A stretch of 6,797 nt of DNA, from NCBI GenBank assembly GCA_023136815.1, contig JAGLQM010000043.1, positions 1 to 6,797 of the forward strand, given 5' to 3'. The translations under genes were made by a program, and so were the position numbers. Below, piece after piece: positions 1-5,633 of this stretch (positions are counted from its first letter, which is position 1; every line of letters begins with the position of its first letter). The DNA is from Thermoplasmata archaeon. Lineage in GTDB: Archaea > Thermoplasmatota > Thermoplasmata > SG8-5. A model generated the notes under the pieces. That model did not search any database. It was not told the origin of the DNA and saw only the letters and a list, made by a program, of their open reading frames with translations.

Positions 1-72
1 TGGTTTGCGTTAGGATGAATCTTGAATTCATCTGTTTTTGACTGTGATTTATACATAAAGTGTTAAAAATAG
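1..72 (+). repeat. Modular palindromic repeat, copy 1 (left end cut by window edge)
   Basis: The window opens with TGGTTTGCG, the right arm of hairpin A as seen in full at 3119-3140. GTTAG follows, then hairpin B (GATGAAT 14-20, ATTCATC 26-32, 5-nt loop) and hairpin C (TTTTTGAC 35-42, GTTAAAAA 62-69, one G-U pair), ending in TAG at 72. Positions 1-24 are identical to 3132-3155. Positions 25-83 match 3207-3265 at 52 of 59 sites, so similarity runs slightly past the hairpins. The copy lies beyond the 3' end of the LamG gene. Function is unknown; it could act as a transcript end, a REP-like element or a small non-autonomous mobile element. Confidence 0.85.
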
Positions 73-136
73 GCTTTAATTGTCAAATTTTTGGTGGAAT
101 TCGAACAGAAACTGAAAGAAGAATCGAAAAGAGAAA

Positions 137-1816
137 TTATATATTGTCTCGATTCTTTGTGTCCACTATGAAGGGGGTCACTCCACCATCACCATCGTAA
201 TCAGCATTTTCAATATCATCGATTAATGCATTTAATTGTTCTCGTGCATCATCATCTATGACCCAGTCATTGCCAGCGTAGTGACCTTCTGGTTTTTTCC
301 CGTGACCGCTACTTTTATCTTCATGCCCTGGGTCGCCATCCATTTTTGACCTTATATCATCTTCTAATTTATCCAAGGCTTCGGTGTAATTTCCATTGTT
401 CGTTAACTCTATTATCGCATCTAATTTATTTGCAAAAGCATTTTTTCGTTGCTCTGGGGGATATTTAAATGCTGAGTTAGGTAAATTCTGAATTGCGGCA
501 TTTAGTGCATTTATATCGTCTACAAAATCTTGAATGTACCATTCAGAAGAAGTAACAACAATCTTCAAAGCATCCGCTGGAAAATAATAATTCCCCAAAC
601 CACTGTTTTTCTCTACTTGGCCTACGGCTAAACCATTTGCCCTTGCATTATTTATCTGTGTAGATCCCCATCCTGCAACATCATTGCCATCATCCCACTG
701 AAGTTCTCCGACCTCCCAATTGGTTCCAGACATTACTTGTCCGGCATTAAATTCCCAACCGCCAGCAATTATAATGTAATATGTTCCTTCAGTACTTGGT
801 GCGGTCACATCAATATCCACCGTGGTTGTACCTGTTCCCGTTCCAAAAGTTCCTTCATCCCAATATGATGATGAATGTGACCCCCAACTTGAAGTTGCTC
901 CAATCGCATAAACTGCACTGCCTGGGCCAGTGTTGTCTAATGAAATGTTAACTGAACCACTAATTATGCTGTATGGTTCAACTTCTATGGACTTGCTTCC
1001 AGAATCGTATGTTAAACCAGAAAATGAACCAGACGTAATATAAATATAACTGTCGGCAGCGAAACCATTTTGAATGTTAGAATTGCTTTGATAATTGGCA
1101 TCAACTTGACTTGCTGTCAGACCGTAATTATAGATTTTCACTTCATCTATTATGCCATCAATTCGTGTACTTGAAGAGCCCCCCCAAGTATGTTTTCCAA
1201 TAAACACAGGTTTAGCATTATTCGCTATGTTGGTAATTGATGTTGATTTACTCTCAATAAGATTCCCATCTACATATAGTGAAATAGTACTGCCGTCGTA
1301 AGTTCCTACGATATGATGATCCACATTCTTAGAAAACTCGTATGAGGAATAAACTAAAGTAGAAGATGCATCATTTCCGATTTTATAGTTGAATTTAAGC
1401 ATATTAGTCGATGGATTCTCATAAACATGCAAGTTGTATTTACTGTGAGTCAAGTCATCTCCAGTACCGATTATATTTTCTCCTTCATCGAGAATGTAAA
1501 CACTGTTGATATTCACCCAGGCTTCCAGAGTAAGTTGGTTAAAATTCTTCAAAGTGGGATTATGGGGAATTTCGACATAATCATCAATACCGTCAAAAGT
1601 TAAACCATTTCCGCTAATTCCTGTTGTCCAAGTAGCACCGTGGACGGTTCCGGTATTTCCATTTCCACTGGTGTCACTTACGGTATTTCCACTTCCTTCT
1701 TCAAATTTCCATTCACCTACTAATTCATCGGCAGCCAATACATTAGTACTCATGAGTGATGCTCCGGTCATCAATAGTAGTGAAATTATCACTGAAATTG
1801 TAATTAATTTCCTCAT
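137..1816 (-). CDS. Secreted LamG-domain surface protein with C-terminal FIMAH-like region
   Basis: This 559-residue exported protein probably binds carbohydrate or another surface ligand; no enzymatic motif is visible. Residues 1-28 form a signal peptide (MRK, a hydrophobic stretch at 5-18, likely cleavage near NVLA-AD). Residues about 32-243 are a LamG/concanavalin-A-like domain of the Laminin_G_3 type: GEWKFEEGSG at the start, LTFDGIDDYVEIP, LTLEAWVN, HHIVGTYDGS, LYVDGNLI, IDGIIDEVKIYNYGLTASQV. Residues about 250-423 are a beta-rich segment I cannot name. Residues about 426-540 are helical and resemble FIMAH domains (AFANKLDAIIELTNNGNYTE, then DWVIDDDAREQLNALIDDI), interrupted by a charged Gly/His/Lys linker at about 494-515. 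No C-terminal membrane helix or PGF-type sorting tail is seen, so it may be released or held non-covalently. The start is supported by GAGGTGA 4 nt upstream. The DNA 3' of the stop is pyrimidine-rich on this strand, which could end transcription. The gene stands alone beside a transposase remnant. Confidence 0.85.
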   Translation of the reverse strand: MRKLITISVIISLLLMTGASLMSTNVLAADELVGEWKFEEGSGNTVSDTSGNGNTGTVHGATWTTGISGNGLTFDGIDDYVEIPHNPTLKNFNQLTLEAWVNINSVYILDEGENIIGTGDDLTHSKYNLHVYENPSTNMLKFNYKIGNDASSTLVYSSYEFSKNVDHHIVGTYDGSTISLYVDGNLIESKSTSITNIANNAKPVFIGKHTWGGSSSTRIDGIIDEVKIYNYGLTASQVDANYQSNSNIQNGFAADSYIYITSGSFSGLTYDSGSKSIEVEPYSIISGSVNISLDNTGPGSAVYAIGATSSWGSHSSSYWDEGTFGTGTGTTTVDIDVTAPSTEGTYYIIIAGGWEFNAGQVMSGTNWEVGELQWDDGNDVAGWGSTQINNARANGLAVGQVEKNSGLGNYYFPADALKIVVTSSEWYIQDFVDDINALNAAIQNLPNSAFKYPPEQRKNAFANKLDAIIELTNNGNYTEALDKLEDDIRSKMDGDPGHEDKSSGHGKKPEGHYAGNDWVIDDDAREQLNALIDDIENADYDGDGGVTPFIVDTKNRDNI

Positions 1817-1890: not shown

Positions 1891-2340
1891 TATACGTCCC
1901 TCCAGCTTTACTATGGAATCTATGACAATGCGACAACAGAAAATGTTATCCAGACACTGGAATCCGGATTCGAAGAATTCGGATATCCCAGAGAAATACT
2001 GACAGATCATGGAACACAATTCATAGCCTGCAAAAAGGACAAGAAAGGAAATTCAAAGCACCGGTTTCCAGAATTTCTGGAAACGCGCGGCATCAAGCAC
2101 ATACTGGCCAGAGTTCATCATCCACAAACAAATGGTAAGATTGAACGGTTTTTTGGAACATTGGAACAGAAACGAAACTTGTTTGATGATGATATTGACC
2201 AGTTAATGCACTGATACAATACCGATAAACCTCACATGAGCCTGGATTTCGCAAATGCCGAGACTCCGGCTGAAGCTTTCTGGCGAAAGTTGCCGGAGGA
2301 AAGAATTTTGGGTTACGGGGGGTGGATGCTTGAAGTGTAA
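1891..2340 (+). pseudogene. Truncated DDE transposase (rve integrase core), IS481-like remnant
   Basis: One frame encodes the C-terminal part of an rve-type transposase. Recognisable pieces are NATTENVIQTLESGFEEFGYP, then ILTDHGTQF with the second catalytic Asp, then HHPQTNGKIERFFGT with the catalytic Glu (45 residues between Asp and Glu), then YNTDKPHMSL and ETPAEAFWRKLPEERILGYG before a TAA at 2338. The N-terminal half, including the HTH region and the first catalytic Asp, is absent. Recognisable homology begins at about 1906, and an in-frame TGA lies at 1888-1890. A TGA at 2212-2214 sits where this family usually has Trp (the WYN of the WYNxxRPH motif), so one G-to-A change would explain it. 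The element is therefore dead. It lies between the divergent LamG and pdaD genes, and its right end must fall within about 40 nt of the pdaD TATA box. Family assignment is by motif; IS481-like is an inference. Confidence 0.85.
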
Positions 2341-2412: not shown

Positions 2413-2970
2413 ATGACCGAAAATCCTCTCCTTCCAAAGAAGGTGTTTTTCACCAAGGGCACAGGTAGACACAAGGAAAAGCTCAGCAGCTTTGAGCTGG
2501 CTCTGAGGAGTGCTGGCATTGAGAAATATAATCTTGTACGTGTTTCTTCAATACTGCCGCCCCACTGCAAGGTTGTTACAAAGAGCAAAGGACTGGAAGA
2601 GCTTGATCCTGGCCAGATTGTTTTTGTTGTACTGGCGGAAAATGAGACCAATGAACCAAACAGACTTCTTTCTGCATCCATTGGTGTTGCAATCCCTAAT
2701 AACAAGGAACAATATGGATACCTTAGTGAACATCATTCCTTTGGCCAGAGTGAGAAAGCCTGTGGTGAGTATGCGGAAGATCTGGCTGCCCAGATGCTGG
2801 CTTCCACTTTTGGCATACCCTTTGATGTTGATGCAAGCTATGATGAGAAGAAGGATATCTTCAAAATGGACGGTCGGATAATCAAGACCAAACATAACAC
2901 ACAGTCTGCAGTCTGCGGCAAGGACGGATTGTGGACCACCGTTGTTTCCGTAGCGGTCTTTGTACTATAG
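2413..2970 (+). CDS. pdaD: Pyruvoyl-dependent arginine decarboxylase
   Basis: PdaD decarboxylates arginine to agmatine (EC 4.1.1.19). In archaea agmatine feeds polyamine synthesis and agmatidine modification of tRNA-Ile2. The enzyme is cytosolic, and the family forms trimers of self-cleaved alpha/beta subunits. The 185-residue protein has the family landmarks: [20 protein letters not shown] near the N-terminus, then [13 protein letters not shown], where self-cleavage is expected between Ser45 and Ser46 to leave the pyruvoyl group on Ser46. [10 protein letters not shown] follows, whose Glu106 should correspond to the conserved catalytic Glu, and [12 protein letters not shown]. Length is slightly above the roughly 165 residues of the Methanocaldococcus enzyme. 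I chose the ATG at 2413 over an in-frame GTG at 2368. The GTG lies upstream of the TATA box, whereas the ATG sits at the predicted transcription start. The gene looks intact despite the adjacent dead transposase, and no partner gene is adjacent. Confidence 0.95.
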
Positions 2971-3025: not shown

Positions 3026-3109
3026 ATACAGTCATCCTACCATTGATGAGATTGAAGCAAGAACAAACATTTTCAACGTAAACTTGATATTAAAATCAAA
3101 TCTGTGTTA

Positions 3110-3254
3110 CACCTATTTCGCAAACCACATTTGGTTTGCGTTAGGATGAATCTTGGATTCATCGCAAATTTGACATTTAAGTACCCATTGTCTTTGTCAA
3201 AGTTAGAATTCATCTGTTTTTGACTGTGATTTATGCACAAAATGTCAAAAATAG
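3110..3254 (+). repeat. Modular palindromic repeat, copy 2 (most complete)
   Basis: The copy begins CACCTA, as copy 3 does. Hairpin A is CGCAAACCA (3119-3127), loop CATT, TGGTTTGCG (3132-3140): 9 perfect pairs. TTAG follows, then hairpin B, GATGAATC (3145-3152), loop TTG, GATTCATC (3156-3163): 8 perfect pairs. Hairpin C is TTTGACA (3169-3175) with TGTCAAA (3195-3201). A second, shortened B (TTAGAATTCATC, 3203-3214) leads into a second C, TTTTTGAC (3217-3224) with GTCAAAAA (3244-3251), and a closing TAG. It sits between the 3' end of pdaD and the 5' end of the glycosyltransferase gene. Function unknown. Confidence 0.9.
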
Positions 3255-3324
3255 ATTTTAACTGTAATTTCAGAGAACTTCATCTGCATCAAGCCCAAGG
3301 AAAGCATAAATTATTATATTAGCC

Positions 3325-3360: not shown

Positions 3361-4074
3361 ATGTTGATGACAGGGGAACCAAAGGTTACTGTTGTAATAC
3401 CCACCATGAACGAGGAAGAGGCCATAGGCCAGGTCATGGACGAGGTTAATGCTGCTCTGAAAGGTATGGACTATGATATAATGATAGTTGATACAAATTC
3501 CAAAGATAAAACCCGGGAAATCGCAGCCAGCAAGGGTGCGAAAATAATTGATGAGCCAAGGCGCGGTTATGGGAGAGCTTACAAGACTGGCTTTAAGGAG
3601 GCAAAAGGAACATTTATTGCAACACTGGATGCAGACTGCACTTATCCAGCAGCCGATATTCCAAAGTTCATGAAGATGCTTGAATCCGAGAACATTGATT
3701 TCATTTCCGGCGATAGATTATCCACCCTGGGAAAAAATGTAATGAACTTCAAGCACAGATTGGGCAACTGGATGCTGAAAGTTGCTATGAACATGCTTTT
3801 CTCCATGAGAGTAGCAGATTCCCAGACTGGCATGTGGGTTTTTCGTCGATCAATTTTACCAAAGCTCAATCTGACCAGCGATCAGATGGCACTTTCAGAG
3901 GAAATAAAAATTGAAGCTGCCAAGCACTGCAAGTTCAAGGAAGTTCCAATCAAATACTGCCCACGGGTGGGCGAGGTTAAACTGAACACATGGAAGGACG
4001 GTTATGACAATATGATGTTCTTTTTCAGCAAGAAAATGGGAAAGGCCAGCAAGACAGAAGGCGAGAAATTTTAA
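3361..4074 (+). CDS. Family 2 glycosyltransferase, dolichol-phosphate mannosyltransferase-like
   Basis: This 237-residue enzyme has a GT-A fold of the DPM1/DPG-synthase group and probably transfers a sugar from a nucleotide sugar to a polyprenyl (dolichyl) phosphate at the inner membrane face. Visible motifs in order: VTVVIPTMNEEEAIG (9-23), IVDTNSKDKT (42-51, the usual nucleotide-binding VDxxSxDxT), RRGYGRAYKTGF (67-78), TLDADCTYP with the metal-binding DAD at 90-92, SGDRL (116-120), HRLGNW (132-137), ADSQTGMWVFRR (152-163), and LSEEIKIEA (178-186). There are no C-terminal membrane helices, unlike longer archaeal relatives. The ATG at 3361 is two codons before another ATG at 3367, and either could be used. 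The gene converges on uppP with 3 nt between stops. A shared role in lipid-carrier glycosylation is an inference from this pairing. Sugar and acceptor cannot be told from sequence. Confidence 0.9.
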   Translation: MLMTGEPKVTVVIPTMNEEEAIGQVMDEVNAALKGMDYDIMIVDTNSKDKTREIAASKGAKIIDEPRRGYGRAYKTGFKEAKGTFIATLDADCTYPAADIPKFMKMLESENIDFISGDRLSTLGKNVMNFKHRLGNWMLKVAMNMLFSMRVADSQTGMWVFRRSILPKLNLTSDQMALSEEIKIEAAKHCKFKEVPIKYCPRVGEVKLNTWKDGYDNMMFFFSKKMGKASKTEGEKF

Positions 4075-4077
4075 CAA

Positions 4078-4875
4078 TTACCCCATAAGCCAGAACAGCA
4101 AGGCCATGGATATTGCCAGACTGCCGAATACCATGCAGAATTTTGAGAAGTCCACATTTTTGGCGACCTTGACAAGAACAGACATTGATATGTATCCAAA
4201 GATAAATGATGATATTGCTGCAATTATCAGGAGCCAGATGCCTATCTCAGTCATCTCGCCAAACACCACAAAATAGGCAAATGAGGCAATTGAAACTGGT
4301 ACAGAAAGCAGGAATGAGAATACCAGGGCTTCAGTTTCCCTGAATTTTCGCATGAGAAGGGTTGTGATAGTCATTCCCGAACGAGACACGCCAGGAAGCA
4401 CAGCGAATGCCTGGGCCAGTCCTACAATAGCATAATCCACATAGCTGCCGGCAGAAATTGGCTTGAAGGTTCCTTTTGGCCGCCTTCCCAGCATTATTCC
4501 TGTTAAAATAAGGGCCGCACCAATGAATAGAGTTATTGTCATCCCGGTCCAGAGCTGGCTGTCGAAGGTCTGCTCCAACAGGAAAAGAATCGGCAAGGCA
4601 CATATTAATGAGATTATTGTTGTGGTCCAGTAGAATTTCTTCTGGTTGGTGAACATTCTAATGTCCAGCATTTTGACAAGGTGTCCGGGGTACCTGGCAA
4701 AGACCGCTGCCGCCGTACCGATGTGCACCGCCAGGCCGAAGGATATGGCCAGTTCCGGACGTATGCCCATGAAATCCACCATGACCAGGGTTGTCTGGCC
4801 AGAGCTGGATACTGGAAGCCATTCCAGAACGCCCTGGAGAACTCCTATCAGAATGGCAGTGAACCAATCAAACAT
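4078..4875 (-). CDS. uppP: Undecaprenyl/polyprenyl-diphosphate phosphatase family (UppP/BacA)
   Basis: This 265-residue polytopic membrane protein should remove a phosphate from a polyprenyl diphosphate so the lipid carrier can be reused. In archaea the carrier would be a dolichyl-type lipid. The two family signatures are present: QGVLEWLPVSSSGQ (14-27, containing the QxxxE motif with Glu18) and PGVSRSGMT (161-169, Arg165). Hydrophobic segments occur at about 44-60, 84-100, 109-129, 147-160, 184-205, 212-236 and 246-263, and the size matches the family. The His that usually follows SSSG in bacteria is Gln27 here. I recall Q or N at this site in archaeal homologues, so it may be a lineage trait rather than a defect. 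The ATG at 4875 has no Shine-Dalgarno and an AT-rich box about 26 nt upstream, suggesting a leaderless transcript. The gene is convergent with the glycosyltransferase gene. Confidence 0.92.
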   Translation of the reverse strand: MFDWFTAILIGVLQGVLEWLPVSSSGQTTLVMVDFMGIRPELAISFGLAVHIGTAAAVFARYPGHLVKMLDIRMFTNQKKFYWTTTIISLICALPILFLLEQTFDSQLWTGMTITLFIGAALILTGIMLGRRPKGTFKPISAGSYVDYAIVGLAQAFAVLPGVSRSGMTITTLLMRKFRETEALVFSFLLSVPVSIASFAYFVVFGEMTEIGIWLLIIAAISSFIFGYISMSVLVKVAKNVDFSKFCMVFGSLAISMALLFWLMG

Positions 4876-4949: not shown

Positions 4950-5040
4950 TTGGAACTTATATGAGTTGGTGTACTCCGATAATTACAAAAAACTGACGTG
5001 GTTTAGTATAATCAAAAATTCATATCACAAACTTGCGTCT

Positions 5041-5184
5041 CACCTAACTCGTGAATCAAAATGATTCACGTTAGAATGAAGCATAGCTTCATTCGGTTCG
5101 AAAACCATGCTTGGTTTATGTCAGAATGAATTTCTAATTCATTCTGTCTTTGACATCTATCTAAACACCAATTGTCAAAGCTAG
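5041..5184 (+). repeat. Modular palindromic repeat, copy 3 (expanded A-B-A-B-C form)
   Basis: It starts CACCTAACTCG, matching the CACCTATTTCG of copy 2. Hairpin A is CGTGAATCA (5050-5058), AAA, TGATTCACG (5062-5070): 9 perfect pairs. Hairpin B is GAATGAAGC (5074-5082), ATA, GCTTCATTC (5086-5094): 9 perfect pairs. A second A is AAACCA (5102-5107), 4-nt loop, TGGTTT (5112-5117), followed by ATGTCAG. A second B is GAATGAATT (5124-5132), TCT, AATTCATTC (5136-5144): 9 perfect pairs. Hairpin C is CTTTGACA (5148-5155) with TGTCAAAG (5173-5180), followed by CTAG. Arm sequences differ from copy 2 while pairing is kept. The copy lies between the 3' end of the SCP2-like gene and the 5' side of uppP. Confidence 0.9.
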
Positions 5185-5260
5185 CTCAATATGGAGTGTT
5201 TAGTAATTTATTAGCATTCTTTTTTGGCTTATTTGTTACCAGAGTTTAGTATCTGCCTTT

Positions 5261-5285
5261 CTTTAAAATAGCCAACATTTGTTGG
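5261..5285 (-). terminator. Probable terminator of the SCP2-like gene
   Basis: On the minus strand, 9 nt after the stop codon, CCAACA and TGTTGG (5272-5285) form a 6-bp stem with a 2-nt loop. CTATTTTAAAG follows. The hairpin plus short T-run is suggestive, but the T-run is weak. Confidence 0.4.
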
Positions 5286-5294
5286 GGCCAGTCA

Positions 5295-5633
5295 TCAGAT
5301 TAGTTTTTTAACTCGCATAATATCTTCTATGCTGGCATCAAATTTCAGGCGCTTTGTGGCCCAGGCTCTCATTGGTTTCAGTTCGCCAGTGAAAAGAAGT
5401 TTAAAATCTGCAGTTGTGGCATGTATGGTTATTTCTGCCTCGTCAATTGTCCCGCGCTTGAATTCAAGTATCTGGCCCTTGTCAATGATAAAGCTGAAAC
5501 CTTCATTGTCTGTTGTGTCTATATTGACCTTGCGAACAATATCTGCAAGTTCTTTCTTTAGCTCCTCATCTTCCTCTATCTTGGCTTTGTACTTGTCAAT
5601 TGCATCTTTAATATTTTCTTCAAGTTTATCCAT
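5295..5633 (-). CDS. SCP2 sterol-binding-like domain protein
   Basis: This small soluble protein of 112 residues carries an SCP2-type lipid-binding fold. Residues 1-36 are a charged, largely helical stretch (EENIKDAIDKYKAKIEEDEE). Residues about 45-75 are beta strands (FSFIIDKGQILEFKRGTIDE, AEITIHAT). The family's typical C-terminal half follows: TTADFKLLFTGELKPMRAWA, then KRLKFDASIEDIMRVKKLI. Relatives bind hydrophobic molecules, but the ligand in archaea is not known. The ATG is preceded by AGGTGA with a 6-nt spacer. The gene starts 31 nt after the rnhB stop on the same strand, so the two are probably co-transcribed from the rnhB promoter, and this gene uses Shine-Dalgarno initiation as the internal cistron. 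No link in function to RNase HII is evident. Confidence 0.85.
   Translation of the reverse strand: MDKLEENIKDAIDKYKAKIEEDEELKKELADIVRKVNIDTTDNEGFSFIIDKGQILEFKRGTIDEAEITIHATTADFKLLFTGELKPMRAWATKRLKFDASIEDIMRVKKLI

What the first reader, a model, noticed from the sequence alone, without database searches (positions are those of the whole stretch)
3110..3254. Modular A-B-C palindromic repeat family in archaeal intergenic DNA
Three intergenic copies (1-72, 3110-3254, 5041-5184) share an ordered set of short perfect hairpins. The left edge is CACCTA. Hairpin A has arms bounded by CG and is followed by GTTAG. Hairpin B is RATGAA...TTCATY with a 3-5 nt loop. Hairpin C is TTTGAC, 19-20 nt, GTCAAA, closed by TAG. 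Copy 3 repeats A-B before C, and copy 2 repeats B-C. All sit just beyond gene 3' ends. I cannot match this to a named repeat. It could be a REP/MITE-like element, a structured 3'-UTR or a recombination hotspot.
Basis: seen in the sequence. Interest (0 to 1): 0.75.

Follow-up and report, generated by a model that had tools for sequence, protein, structure and literature searches.

The report
Hairpins nested inside other hairpins
This archaeal genome carries dozens of copies of a mosaic repeat made of short DNA hairpins, in which a 50-letter double hairpin sits inside other hairpins, among them the end hairpins of a family of jumping genes whose enzyme likely moves it.

Summary
The repeat is real and one of many. 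The own genome (0.95 Mb draft) holds 56 long-loop hairpins TTTGAC-N17..22-GTCAAA (control pattern 0) and 29 places matching a model of the A-TTAR-B double hairpin. The long-loop pattern is above background in two genomes of the genus only; the double hairpin reaches the order. A and B are kept by compensatory changes. The A-B unit is inserted inside other hairpins: in C (empty and filled versions coexist) and in the loop of the right-end hairpins of two IS200-type transposons whose Y1 genes are present. In one relative, 20 of 22 copies read sit at the same point of that loop, each with a different downstream flank, so the double hairpin travels inside non-autonomous IS200 derivatives. Arrays avoid genes but show no preference for gene 3' ends or a strand, which speaks against a 3'-UTR role. 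The closest published parallel is in Haloquadratum: PATEs, and SMR-A repeats that insert into their near-terminal palindromes and whose mobilisation is called enigmatic. This is a new variant of that kind: smaller, a double hairpin without terminal inverted repeats, likely in Thermoplasmata. Movement by Y1 transposases in trans is inferred, not shown.

The parts
1..73 (+). copy 1, cut by the contig end: right half of hairpin A (1-9), TTAG (10-13), hairpin B (14-32), C hairpin (35-42 with 62-73)
   Evidence: sequence; repeat families D1/D2; R1 match 6-39, E 1.8e-4
3095..3106 (+). remnant of the right arm of module D before copy 2
   Evidence: sequence compared with 18 D-C junctions
3112..3118 (+). 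CCTATTT, left arm of the interrupted C hairpin
   Evidence: comparison with filled and empty C hairpins
3119..3140 (+). hairpin A of copy 2
   Evidence: perfect 9-bp stem; R1 match 3119-3170, E 2.7e-12 (this copy is in the model's training set)
3141..3163 (+). TTAG linker and hairpin B of copy 2
   Evidence: sequence; covariation
3163..3201 (+). module D hairpin (CGCAAATTTGAC, 21-nt loop, GTCAAA)
   Evidence: core 3169-3201
3207..3216 (+). right half of a hairpin B (AATTCATCTG)
   Evidence: sequence, aligned to copy 1 (D2)
3212..3256 (+). C hairpin of copy 2, 13-bp stem, 19-nt loop
   Evidence: core 3219-3249
5031..5037 (+). remnant of module D before copy 3
   Evidence: sequence compared
5043..5049 (+). 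CCTAACT, left arm of the interrupted C hairpin of copy 3
5050..5094 (+). first A-TTAG-B unit of copy 3 (A 5050-5070, B 5074-5094)
   Evidence: R1 E 1.6e-10 (training copy)
5099..5146 (+). second A-TCAG-B unit of copy 3 (A 5099-5120, B 5122-5146)
   Evidence: R1 E 1.3e-10 (training copy)
5149..5184 (+). inner part of the C hairpin of copy 3 and closing GCTAG
   Evidence: core 5149-5179
137..1816 (-). flanking gene: protein with a Laminin_G_3 domain; its 3' end faces copy 1
   Evidence: E 1.7e-26
2413..2970 (+). flanking gene: pyruvoyl-dependent arginine decarboxylase
   Evidence: E 4.4e-62
3361..4074 (+). flanking gene: family 2 glycosyltransferase
   Evidence: E 1.2e-27
4078..4875 (-). flanking gene: UppP/BacA family
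   Evidence: E 4.3e-44
5295..5633 (-). flanking gene: SCP2 family
   Evidence: E 5.2e-9

Best explanation
The three copies belong to a family of dozens of non-coding hairpin mosaics in a likely Thermoplasmata genome, in which a double hairpin of about 50 nt (A-TTAR-B) sits inside other hairpins, among them the end hairpins of IS200-type transposons, and is likely moved as single-stranded DNA by Y1 transposases acting in trans. Shown: copy number, compensatory changes in A and B, coexisting empty and filled host hairpins, one exact insertion point in the right-end loop (CCCTTT|A-B|TTTAGGGG), and many near-identical filled elements with different flanks in one relative. Inferred: that A-B is itself a minimal end-only element (hairpin A as left end, hairpin B as right end), that Y1 enzymes cut it, and that the exposed T-rich part of a hairpin is its target. 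The larger units then carry it as a passenger. The C/D long-loop hairpins would be a second layer of the same kind, amplified within the genus.
For: Copy number. Covariation: 96.1% of 332 cells paired and 9 of 17 pairs changed on both sides, 0 of 500 shuffles reaching the observed value on four of five measures (20 sequences); 92.1%, 9 of 17, 0 of 500 on the same four measures for 23 distinct rows from other genomes (alignment fitted to the model). Insertion inside hairpins: removing A-B leaves an enclosing hairpin scoring >= 7 in 26 of 43 copies against 13.6% of 353 control places, and >= 9 in 10 of 43 against 2.0%. Empty and filled right ends: IS200-a beside its Y1 gene in G003 reads CCAGTCCCTTTAGGGGCTGGTAGTTTAC, and G007 (L158) reads CCAGTCCCTTT[A-B]TTTAGGGGCTGGTAGTTTAC; IS200-b beside its unbroken Y1 gene in the own genome is empty, C175 is filled. 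In G007, 20 of 22 copies read have exactly this point, 7 distinct A-B sequences, and 20 distinct downstream flanks. Left ends of two non-autonomous elements resemble that of IS200-a (L158 46 of 66, L167 49 of 68 columns; 300 shuffles of L158: mean 35, maximum 44). Y1 genes occur in 13 of 31 genomes searched, own included. Folded alone, two of three filled hosts form a host stem carrying A and B (L158, L034).
Against: None of the 8 Y1 loci read carries A-B (0 matches to R1 at E <= 0.1 in 25 kb) and none has a C/D core nearer than 5 kb. G007, with the most A-B copies after the own genome, has only a third type of Y1 gene. G002 has no Y1 match but two A-B matches. Two other left ends (L160 43, L072 38 columns) do not exceed the shuffle maximum against IS200-a of G001. 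Two of five covariation tallies are not all favourable in both sets: the number of pair types equals shuffles (298 and 309 of 500). 17 of 43 A-B copies leave no enclosing hairpin above the cut-off, some passing hairpins are not the host I name, and 6 of the 43 are near-identical G007 copies; a cruder score gave equal medians. The TTT repeated at both sides of a filled site can be read as a target duplication, which IS200-type insertion is not known to make (recalled), or as part of the element; one search does not settle it. In the third folded host (L007) the outer host stem is absent from the best fold.
Confidence: 0.53

Rival explanations
1. The palindromes spread and nest by replication slippage, template switching or homologous recombination at hairpins, with no transposase for the small modules.
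For: Chimeric joints lie at palindromes: an array with two opposite halves meeting in A (C101), an inverted loop between the arms of a C hairpin (C151), a left C arm joined through A-B to a right IS200-a-like arm (C178). No Y1 locus read carries A-B.
Against: The insertion point in the right-end loop is exact and shared by 20 of 22 copies with different flanks, and the A-TTAR-B build is kept by compensatory change across genera.
Confidence: 0.26
2. Structured RNA in 3' untranslated regions, acting as terminator or stability element.
For: The window copies lie about 65-140 nt beyond gene ends; strong folds also as RNA.
Against: No preference for convergent or tandem gaps, no strand preference (4 with, 6 against), no Rfam family, strong folds as DNA on both strands.
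Confidence: 0.08
3. Binding sites of a DNA-binding protein: the constant TTTGAC/GTCAAA arms with 19- or 21-nt spacers would be an operator or chromatin site.
For: Among 51 sites recovered of 56, spacers cluster at 19 (22), 21 (15) and 20 (10) while the outer arms differ (the exact core is a condition of the search).
Against: Does not explain A-B inside IS200 ends, nor the restriction of the amplified pattern to two genomes of the genus.
Confidence: 0.08

Closest known systems
SMR-A small mobile repeats of Haloquadratum walsbyi (PMC3119063, passages read)
   Same: Transposase-free, multi-copy, archaeal; inserted within the near-terminal palindromes of PATEs and IS605-type transposons; means of movement unknown.
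   Different: SMR-A are about 110 bp with prominent terminal inverted repeats and no target duplication; A-B is about 45-52 nt, two hairpins, no terminal inverted repeat, possible TTT duplication. The paper suggests that SMR-A inactivate their target; here 20 filled elements with different flanks suggest that filling did not stop the carrier.
PATEs, palindrome-associated transposable elements (PMC3119063, passages read)
   Same: Non-autonomous, palindromes near both ends, related to ends of IS200/IS605 transposons; a 52-bp end-only form is reported there.
   Different: No TnpB above the cut-off in the order (0 of 13 genomes; 3 weak matches below it); the carriers contain further nested hairpin modules.
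REP/BIME and RAYT transposases (PMC2817692, PMC3733652, passages read)
   Same: Intergenic mosaics of palindromes linked to Y1 transposases; palindromes kept while sequence changes.
   Different: No GTAG or CGTC tag in the A-B alignment; hairpins nested, not only side by side; no Y1 locus read carries A-B.
IS1397, ISKpn1 and other IS that insert into REP palindromes (PMC1525189, passages read)
   Same: Palindromes as insertion targets.
   Different: Those are insertion sequences with their own transposase; A-B is non-coding and about 50 nt.
Double hairpin elements of fungal mitochondria (mentioned in PMC2800124, passages read)
   Same: Two adjacent hairpins as a unit thought to be mobile.
   Different: Organelle DNA; no link to IS200 elements is mentioned in the passages seen.

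Membership tests
PATE (the carriers) | too short to code for a transposase, palindromes near both ends | tested here: met
   four carriers are 253-335 nt from left-end hairpin to right end, longest stop-free stretch 48-81 codons; hairpins at both ends
PATE (the carriers) | ends related to a transposase-coding IS200/IS605 element | tested here: met
   right end matches IS200-a in all four; left end above shuffles in two (L158, L167), not in two (L160, L072)
PATE (the carriers) | no target duplication | tested here: inconclusive
   TTTAG or TTTAC lies at the left of five of six left ends and TTTAC closes the right end; no empty genomic site was compared
SMR-A | inserts within near-terminal palindromes of IS605-type elements | tested here: met
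   (for A-B, in IS200-type right ends)
SMR-A | about 110 bp with prominent terminal inverted repeats | tested here: not met
   A-B is about 45-52 nt; its two ends are not inverted repeats of each other (read by eye)
REP (GTAG or CGTC tagged) | tetranucleotide tag GTAG or CGTC at one end of the hairpin | tested here: not met
   the linker before B is mostly TTAR or TCAG; no GTAG or CGTC tag at A or B in alignment A2 (read by eye)
RAYT system | transposase gene flanked by two inverted copies of the repeat | tested here: not met
   0 A-B matches at 8 Y1 loci; no C/D core within 5 kb. Drafts are incomplete
MITE with terminal inverted repeats | terminal inverted repeats | tested here: not met
   ends of A-B differ (read by eye)

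The most novel reading that the evidence does not exclude
A-B is among the smallest single-strand transposons yet seen: a 50-nt pair of hairpins with no interior, a parasite of other single-strand transposons that inserts into the tip of their end hairpin, leaves them mobile, and is copied with them.
Probability: 0.3. Interest if true: 0.78.

Novelty: new variant of a known kind. Interest (0 to 1): 0.58.

Why it matters
How transposase-free repeats enter the end palindromes of IS200/IS605 elements is called enigmatic in the one archaeal case that my searches turned up (PMC3119063, passages). Here is a further case, likely in another archaeal class, with a much smaller unit, an exact insertion point, matched empty and filled ends, Y1 genes beside the empty ends, and a genome in which filled elements are numerous. 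That makes the question testable in vitro with short oligonucleotides. It also bears on the suggestion in that paper that such insertions disarm their target: 20 filled elements with different flanks suggest that here they did not.

Tried and rejected
RNA family: no Rfam match apart from a weak one to U2 outside the arrays at E 3, below the gathering score. TnpB guide-RNA ends: rejected, 0 of 13 genomes of the order over the TnpB cut-off, 3 weak matches below it. Virus-borne: 0 exact matches of two patterns in viral contigs. Wider spread: one scan of genome contigs for an exact A-TTAG-B pattern gave one Planctomycetota record without a visible B hairpin, probably chance; the tool says that records of the window's own or very near genomes may be left out. 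First flank-pairing score: medians 4 and 4, >= 7 in 5 of 43 against 2.6% of 1478; replaced by the enclosing-hairpin score. A naive ORF call misplaced the gene at copy 3 and was replaced by a hexamer-based one. A first extraction with wrong strands (9085 conflicts) was redone; only + rows are used. Orthologous empty site for copy 3: not usable, because what follows SCP2 differs in G001 and G002. A Y1 gene with A-B or C/D at its ends: not found at 8 loci. Literature: searches; none of the listings (10 to 25 titles each) showed this family or a Thermoplasmata counterpart, in a library that lacks most subscription papers.

Full report
1. Observation. The window is contig C149 of a 949,536-base draft genome (61% complete, 210 contigs). 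Copies 2 and 3 fold as DNA with z-scores of -8.1 and -9.8 on the + strand and -6.4 and -9.4 on the other, none of 200 shuffles doing as well. The anatomy needs correction. Each full copy is preceded by the remnant of a fourth module, D, and copy 2 contains a D hairpin and half a B between its B and its C. Copy 1 is cut by the contig end.

2. The family. Copy 2 as query gives 63 matches in the own genome at E <= 10, copy 3 gives 26; several can fall in one array. The exact pattern TTTGAC-N17..22-GTCAAA, the core of C and D, occurs 56 times in the own genome, 27 times in G001 and 3 times in G002 of the same genus, and 0 to 2 times in each of the other 58 of 61 genomes; the reversed control pattern gives 0, 1 and 1 in the first three and 0 to 3 elsewhere. 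So it stands above background in the own genome and G001. I recovered 51 of the 56 with flanks; spacers are 19 nt (22), 21 (15), 20 (10), 18 (3), 17 (1). At 18 places a D-like right arm is followed within a few bases by a C left arm, so D-C is a recurrent unit.

3. The double hairpin. I aligned 20 A-B units from the own genome. With the two-hairpin structure, 96.1% of 332 cells pair, 9 of 17 pairs show changes on both sides, 39 cells do; none of 500 shuffles reaches these values or the covariation score, while the number of pair types is as in shuffles (298 of 500); sliding the partners by one to three columns drops pairing to 29-50%. A covariance model (R1) finds 58 matches at E <= 1 in the own genome (150 of 552 candidates scored), many of them the other strand of the same palindromes, and 30 at E <= 0.0014, two of which are one place on both strands, hence 29 places. 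Some are partial. In the 13 genomes of the order (150 candidates scored in each), 9 have a match at E <= 0.05: own 33, G007 26, G001 8, G002 2, and one each in G003, G005, G006, G010 and G012, of which G003, G005 and G012 are weak (0.01-0.05) and G006 and G010 show the same contig in two bins. On 36 matches from other genomes (23 distinct rows) 92.1% of cells pair, with 9 of 17 pairs changed on both sides, 0 of 500 shuffles on four measures and 309 of 500 on pair types; this alignment was fitted to the model and leans towards it.

4. Where the double hairpin sits. It lies inside other hairpins. C hairpins exist empty (for example C146, C201, C192, C156) and filled (C126, C129, C137, C165, C113), with A-B after CCTATTT, CCTAACT or a variant and before the inner TTGAC. 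The right ends of two IS200-type transposons are further hosts. IS200-a has its Y1 gene in G001:C80 and G003:C15 and an empty right end, CCAGCTCCTTTAGGGGCTGGTAGTTTAC or CCAGTCCCTTTAGGGGCTGGTAGTTTAC. IS200-b has an unbroken Y1 gene in the own genome (C127) and an empty right end, GATGCCCCACCCTTTAGGGTTGGGGAGCCCTCACT. Filled IS200-b: C175 of the own genome. Filled IS200-a-like ends: C112, C178 and C187 of the own genome (C178 chimeric, C187 cut by the contig end), L131 of G001, and 20 of 22 copies read in G007, out of 26 matches there. The 20 share the exact point CTTT|A-B|TTTAGG, have 7 distinct A-B sequences and 20 distinct 12-nt downstream flanks. Test over 43 copies (37 from G000, G001, G002, G003, G005, G010 and G012, and 6 of the G007 copies; copies at contig edges left out): after removing A-B the flanks form an enclosing hairpin of score >= 7 in 26, against 13.6% of 353 control places; >= 9 in 10, against 2.0%. 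Some of the passing hairpins are not the host I would name, and the 6 G007 copies are near-identical. An earlier, cruder score showed equal medians. 17 copies do not pass.

5. Carriers. Four G007 and G001 carriers run from a left-end hairpin to the IS200-a right end over 253-335 nt, with no stop-free stretch above 81 codons. Their left ends share 46 of 66 (L158), 49 of 68 (L167), 43 of 68 (L160) and 38 of 64 (L072) columns with IS200-a of G001, where 300 shuffles of L158 give a mean of 35 and a maximum of 44. They are PATE-like, the last two less surely. G007 has no IS200-a transposase in its 85% complete draft, only a third Y1 type, so what moved them there is open. None of 8 Y1 loci carries A-B.

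6. Genes. Gene calling by hexamer scores on 45 segments (234 kb, held because they carry matches) gives 46 arrays; 17 lack a called gene on one side, 29 can be classed: none lies mainly in a gene, 14 are in tandem, 8 in divergent, 7 in convergent gaps; all 103 gaps of 60 bases or more split 50, 31, 22. Of 18 A-B units looked at, 10 lie in tandem gaps, 4 pointing with the genes and 6 against. This is what insertion wherever it does no harm would give. 11 of the 30 best A-B matches lie within 200 bases of a contig end, where 8.8% is expected: the repeats seem to break the assembly and the true number is probably higher.

7. Host. The best-ranked named relatives of the window's RNase HII are from Thermoplasmata: 73% identical in a Candidatus Thermoplasmatota archaeon, 73% and 75% in two Thermoplasmata archaea, 66% in Candidatus Proteinoplasmatales archaeon SG8-5. 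The class is inferred from this.

8. Mechanism. IS200/IS605 enzymes bind subterminal hairpins of single-stranded DNA and insert beside a short target (recalled; single-stranded intermediate and short target also stated in PMC3119063, passages). A unit made of two hairpins and nothing else is what remains of such an element if the interior is lost; PMC3119063 reports a 52-bp end-only form that may be mobile. A-B has that size and build. I therefore take A-B to be an end-only element that Y1 enzymes move in trans, and T-rich parts of hairpins to be its target. Steps shown: build, conservation, nesting, insertion point, multiplication inside carriers. Steps inferred: recognition, cutting, the enzyme, the target rule.

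9. Known relatives. The nesting itself has a precedent: SMR-A repeats in Haloquadratum insert within near-terminal palindromes of PATEs and IS605-type transposons (PMC3119063, passages read). A-B fails the SMR-A description in length and terminal inverted repeats. It fails the REP tag and, at the loci read, the RAYT arrangement. The carriers fit PATE. Hence: new variant of a known kind.

Noticed in passing
L094 (G007:C42) 1738-1990; L093 (G005:C77): A third Y1 type in G001, G003, G005 and G007 has, in 2 of 4 loci, a multi-hairpin repeat of about 200 nt right downstream; that repeat has 36 matches in G007, 42 in G003, 20 in G008, 16 in G005, 9 in G001, 1 in G002 and 1 in the own genome (E <= 0.01, candidates capped at 40 in two genomes). 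This looks like a REP and RAYT pair in archaea.
   Followed up: partly
window 1891-2337: Remnant of an integrase-core (rve) transposase with an internal stop, between the gene of copy 1 and the arginine decarboxylase (PF00665, E 1.7e-8 for the piece 1891-2211; none for 2215-2337).
   Followed up: partly
G006:C69 and G010:C58: Two bins of different families hold a contig of the same length (46,715) with the same match at the same place and identical sequence around it, so one bin is probably contaminated.
   Followed up: no
G000:C151:3600-3840, C101:8450-8720, C178:5170-5340: Chimeric arrays: loop inverted between its arms, two opposite halves joined within A, left C arm joined through A-B to a right IS200-a-like arm.
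   Followed up: partly
L139, L142 (G001): The two hairpins lie inside another long palindrome (TTTACTGCC...GGCAGTAA) with changed linkers (ACAG, AAAG instead of TTAG).
   Followed up: no
window 5184-5295 against L184 (G001:C80) and L174 (G002): In G001 and G002 the gene after SCP2 is a small ORF and not UppP, so copy 3 sits at a synteny break; in G001 an IS200-a right end follows that ORF.
   Followed up: partly
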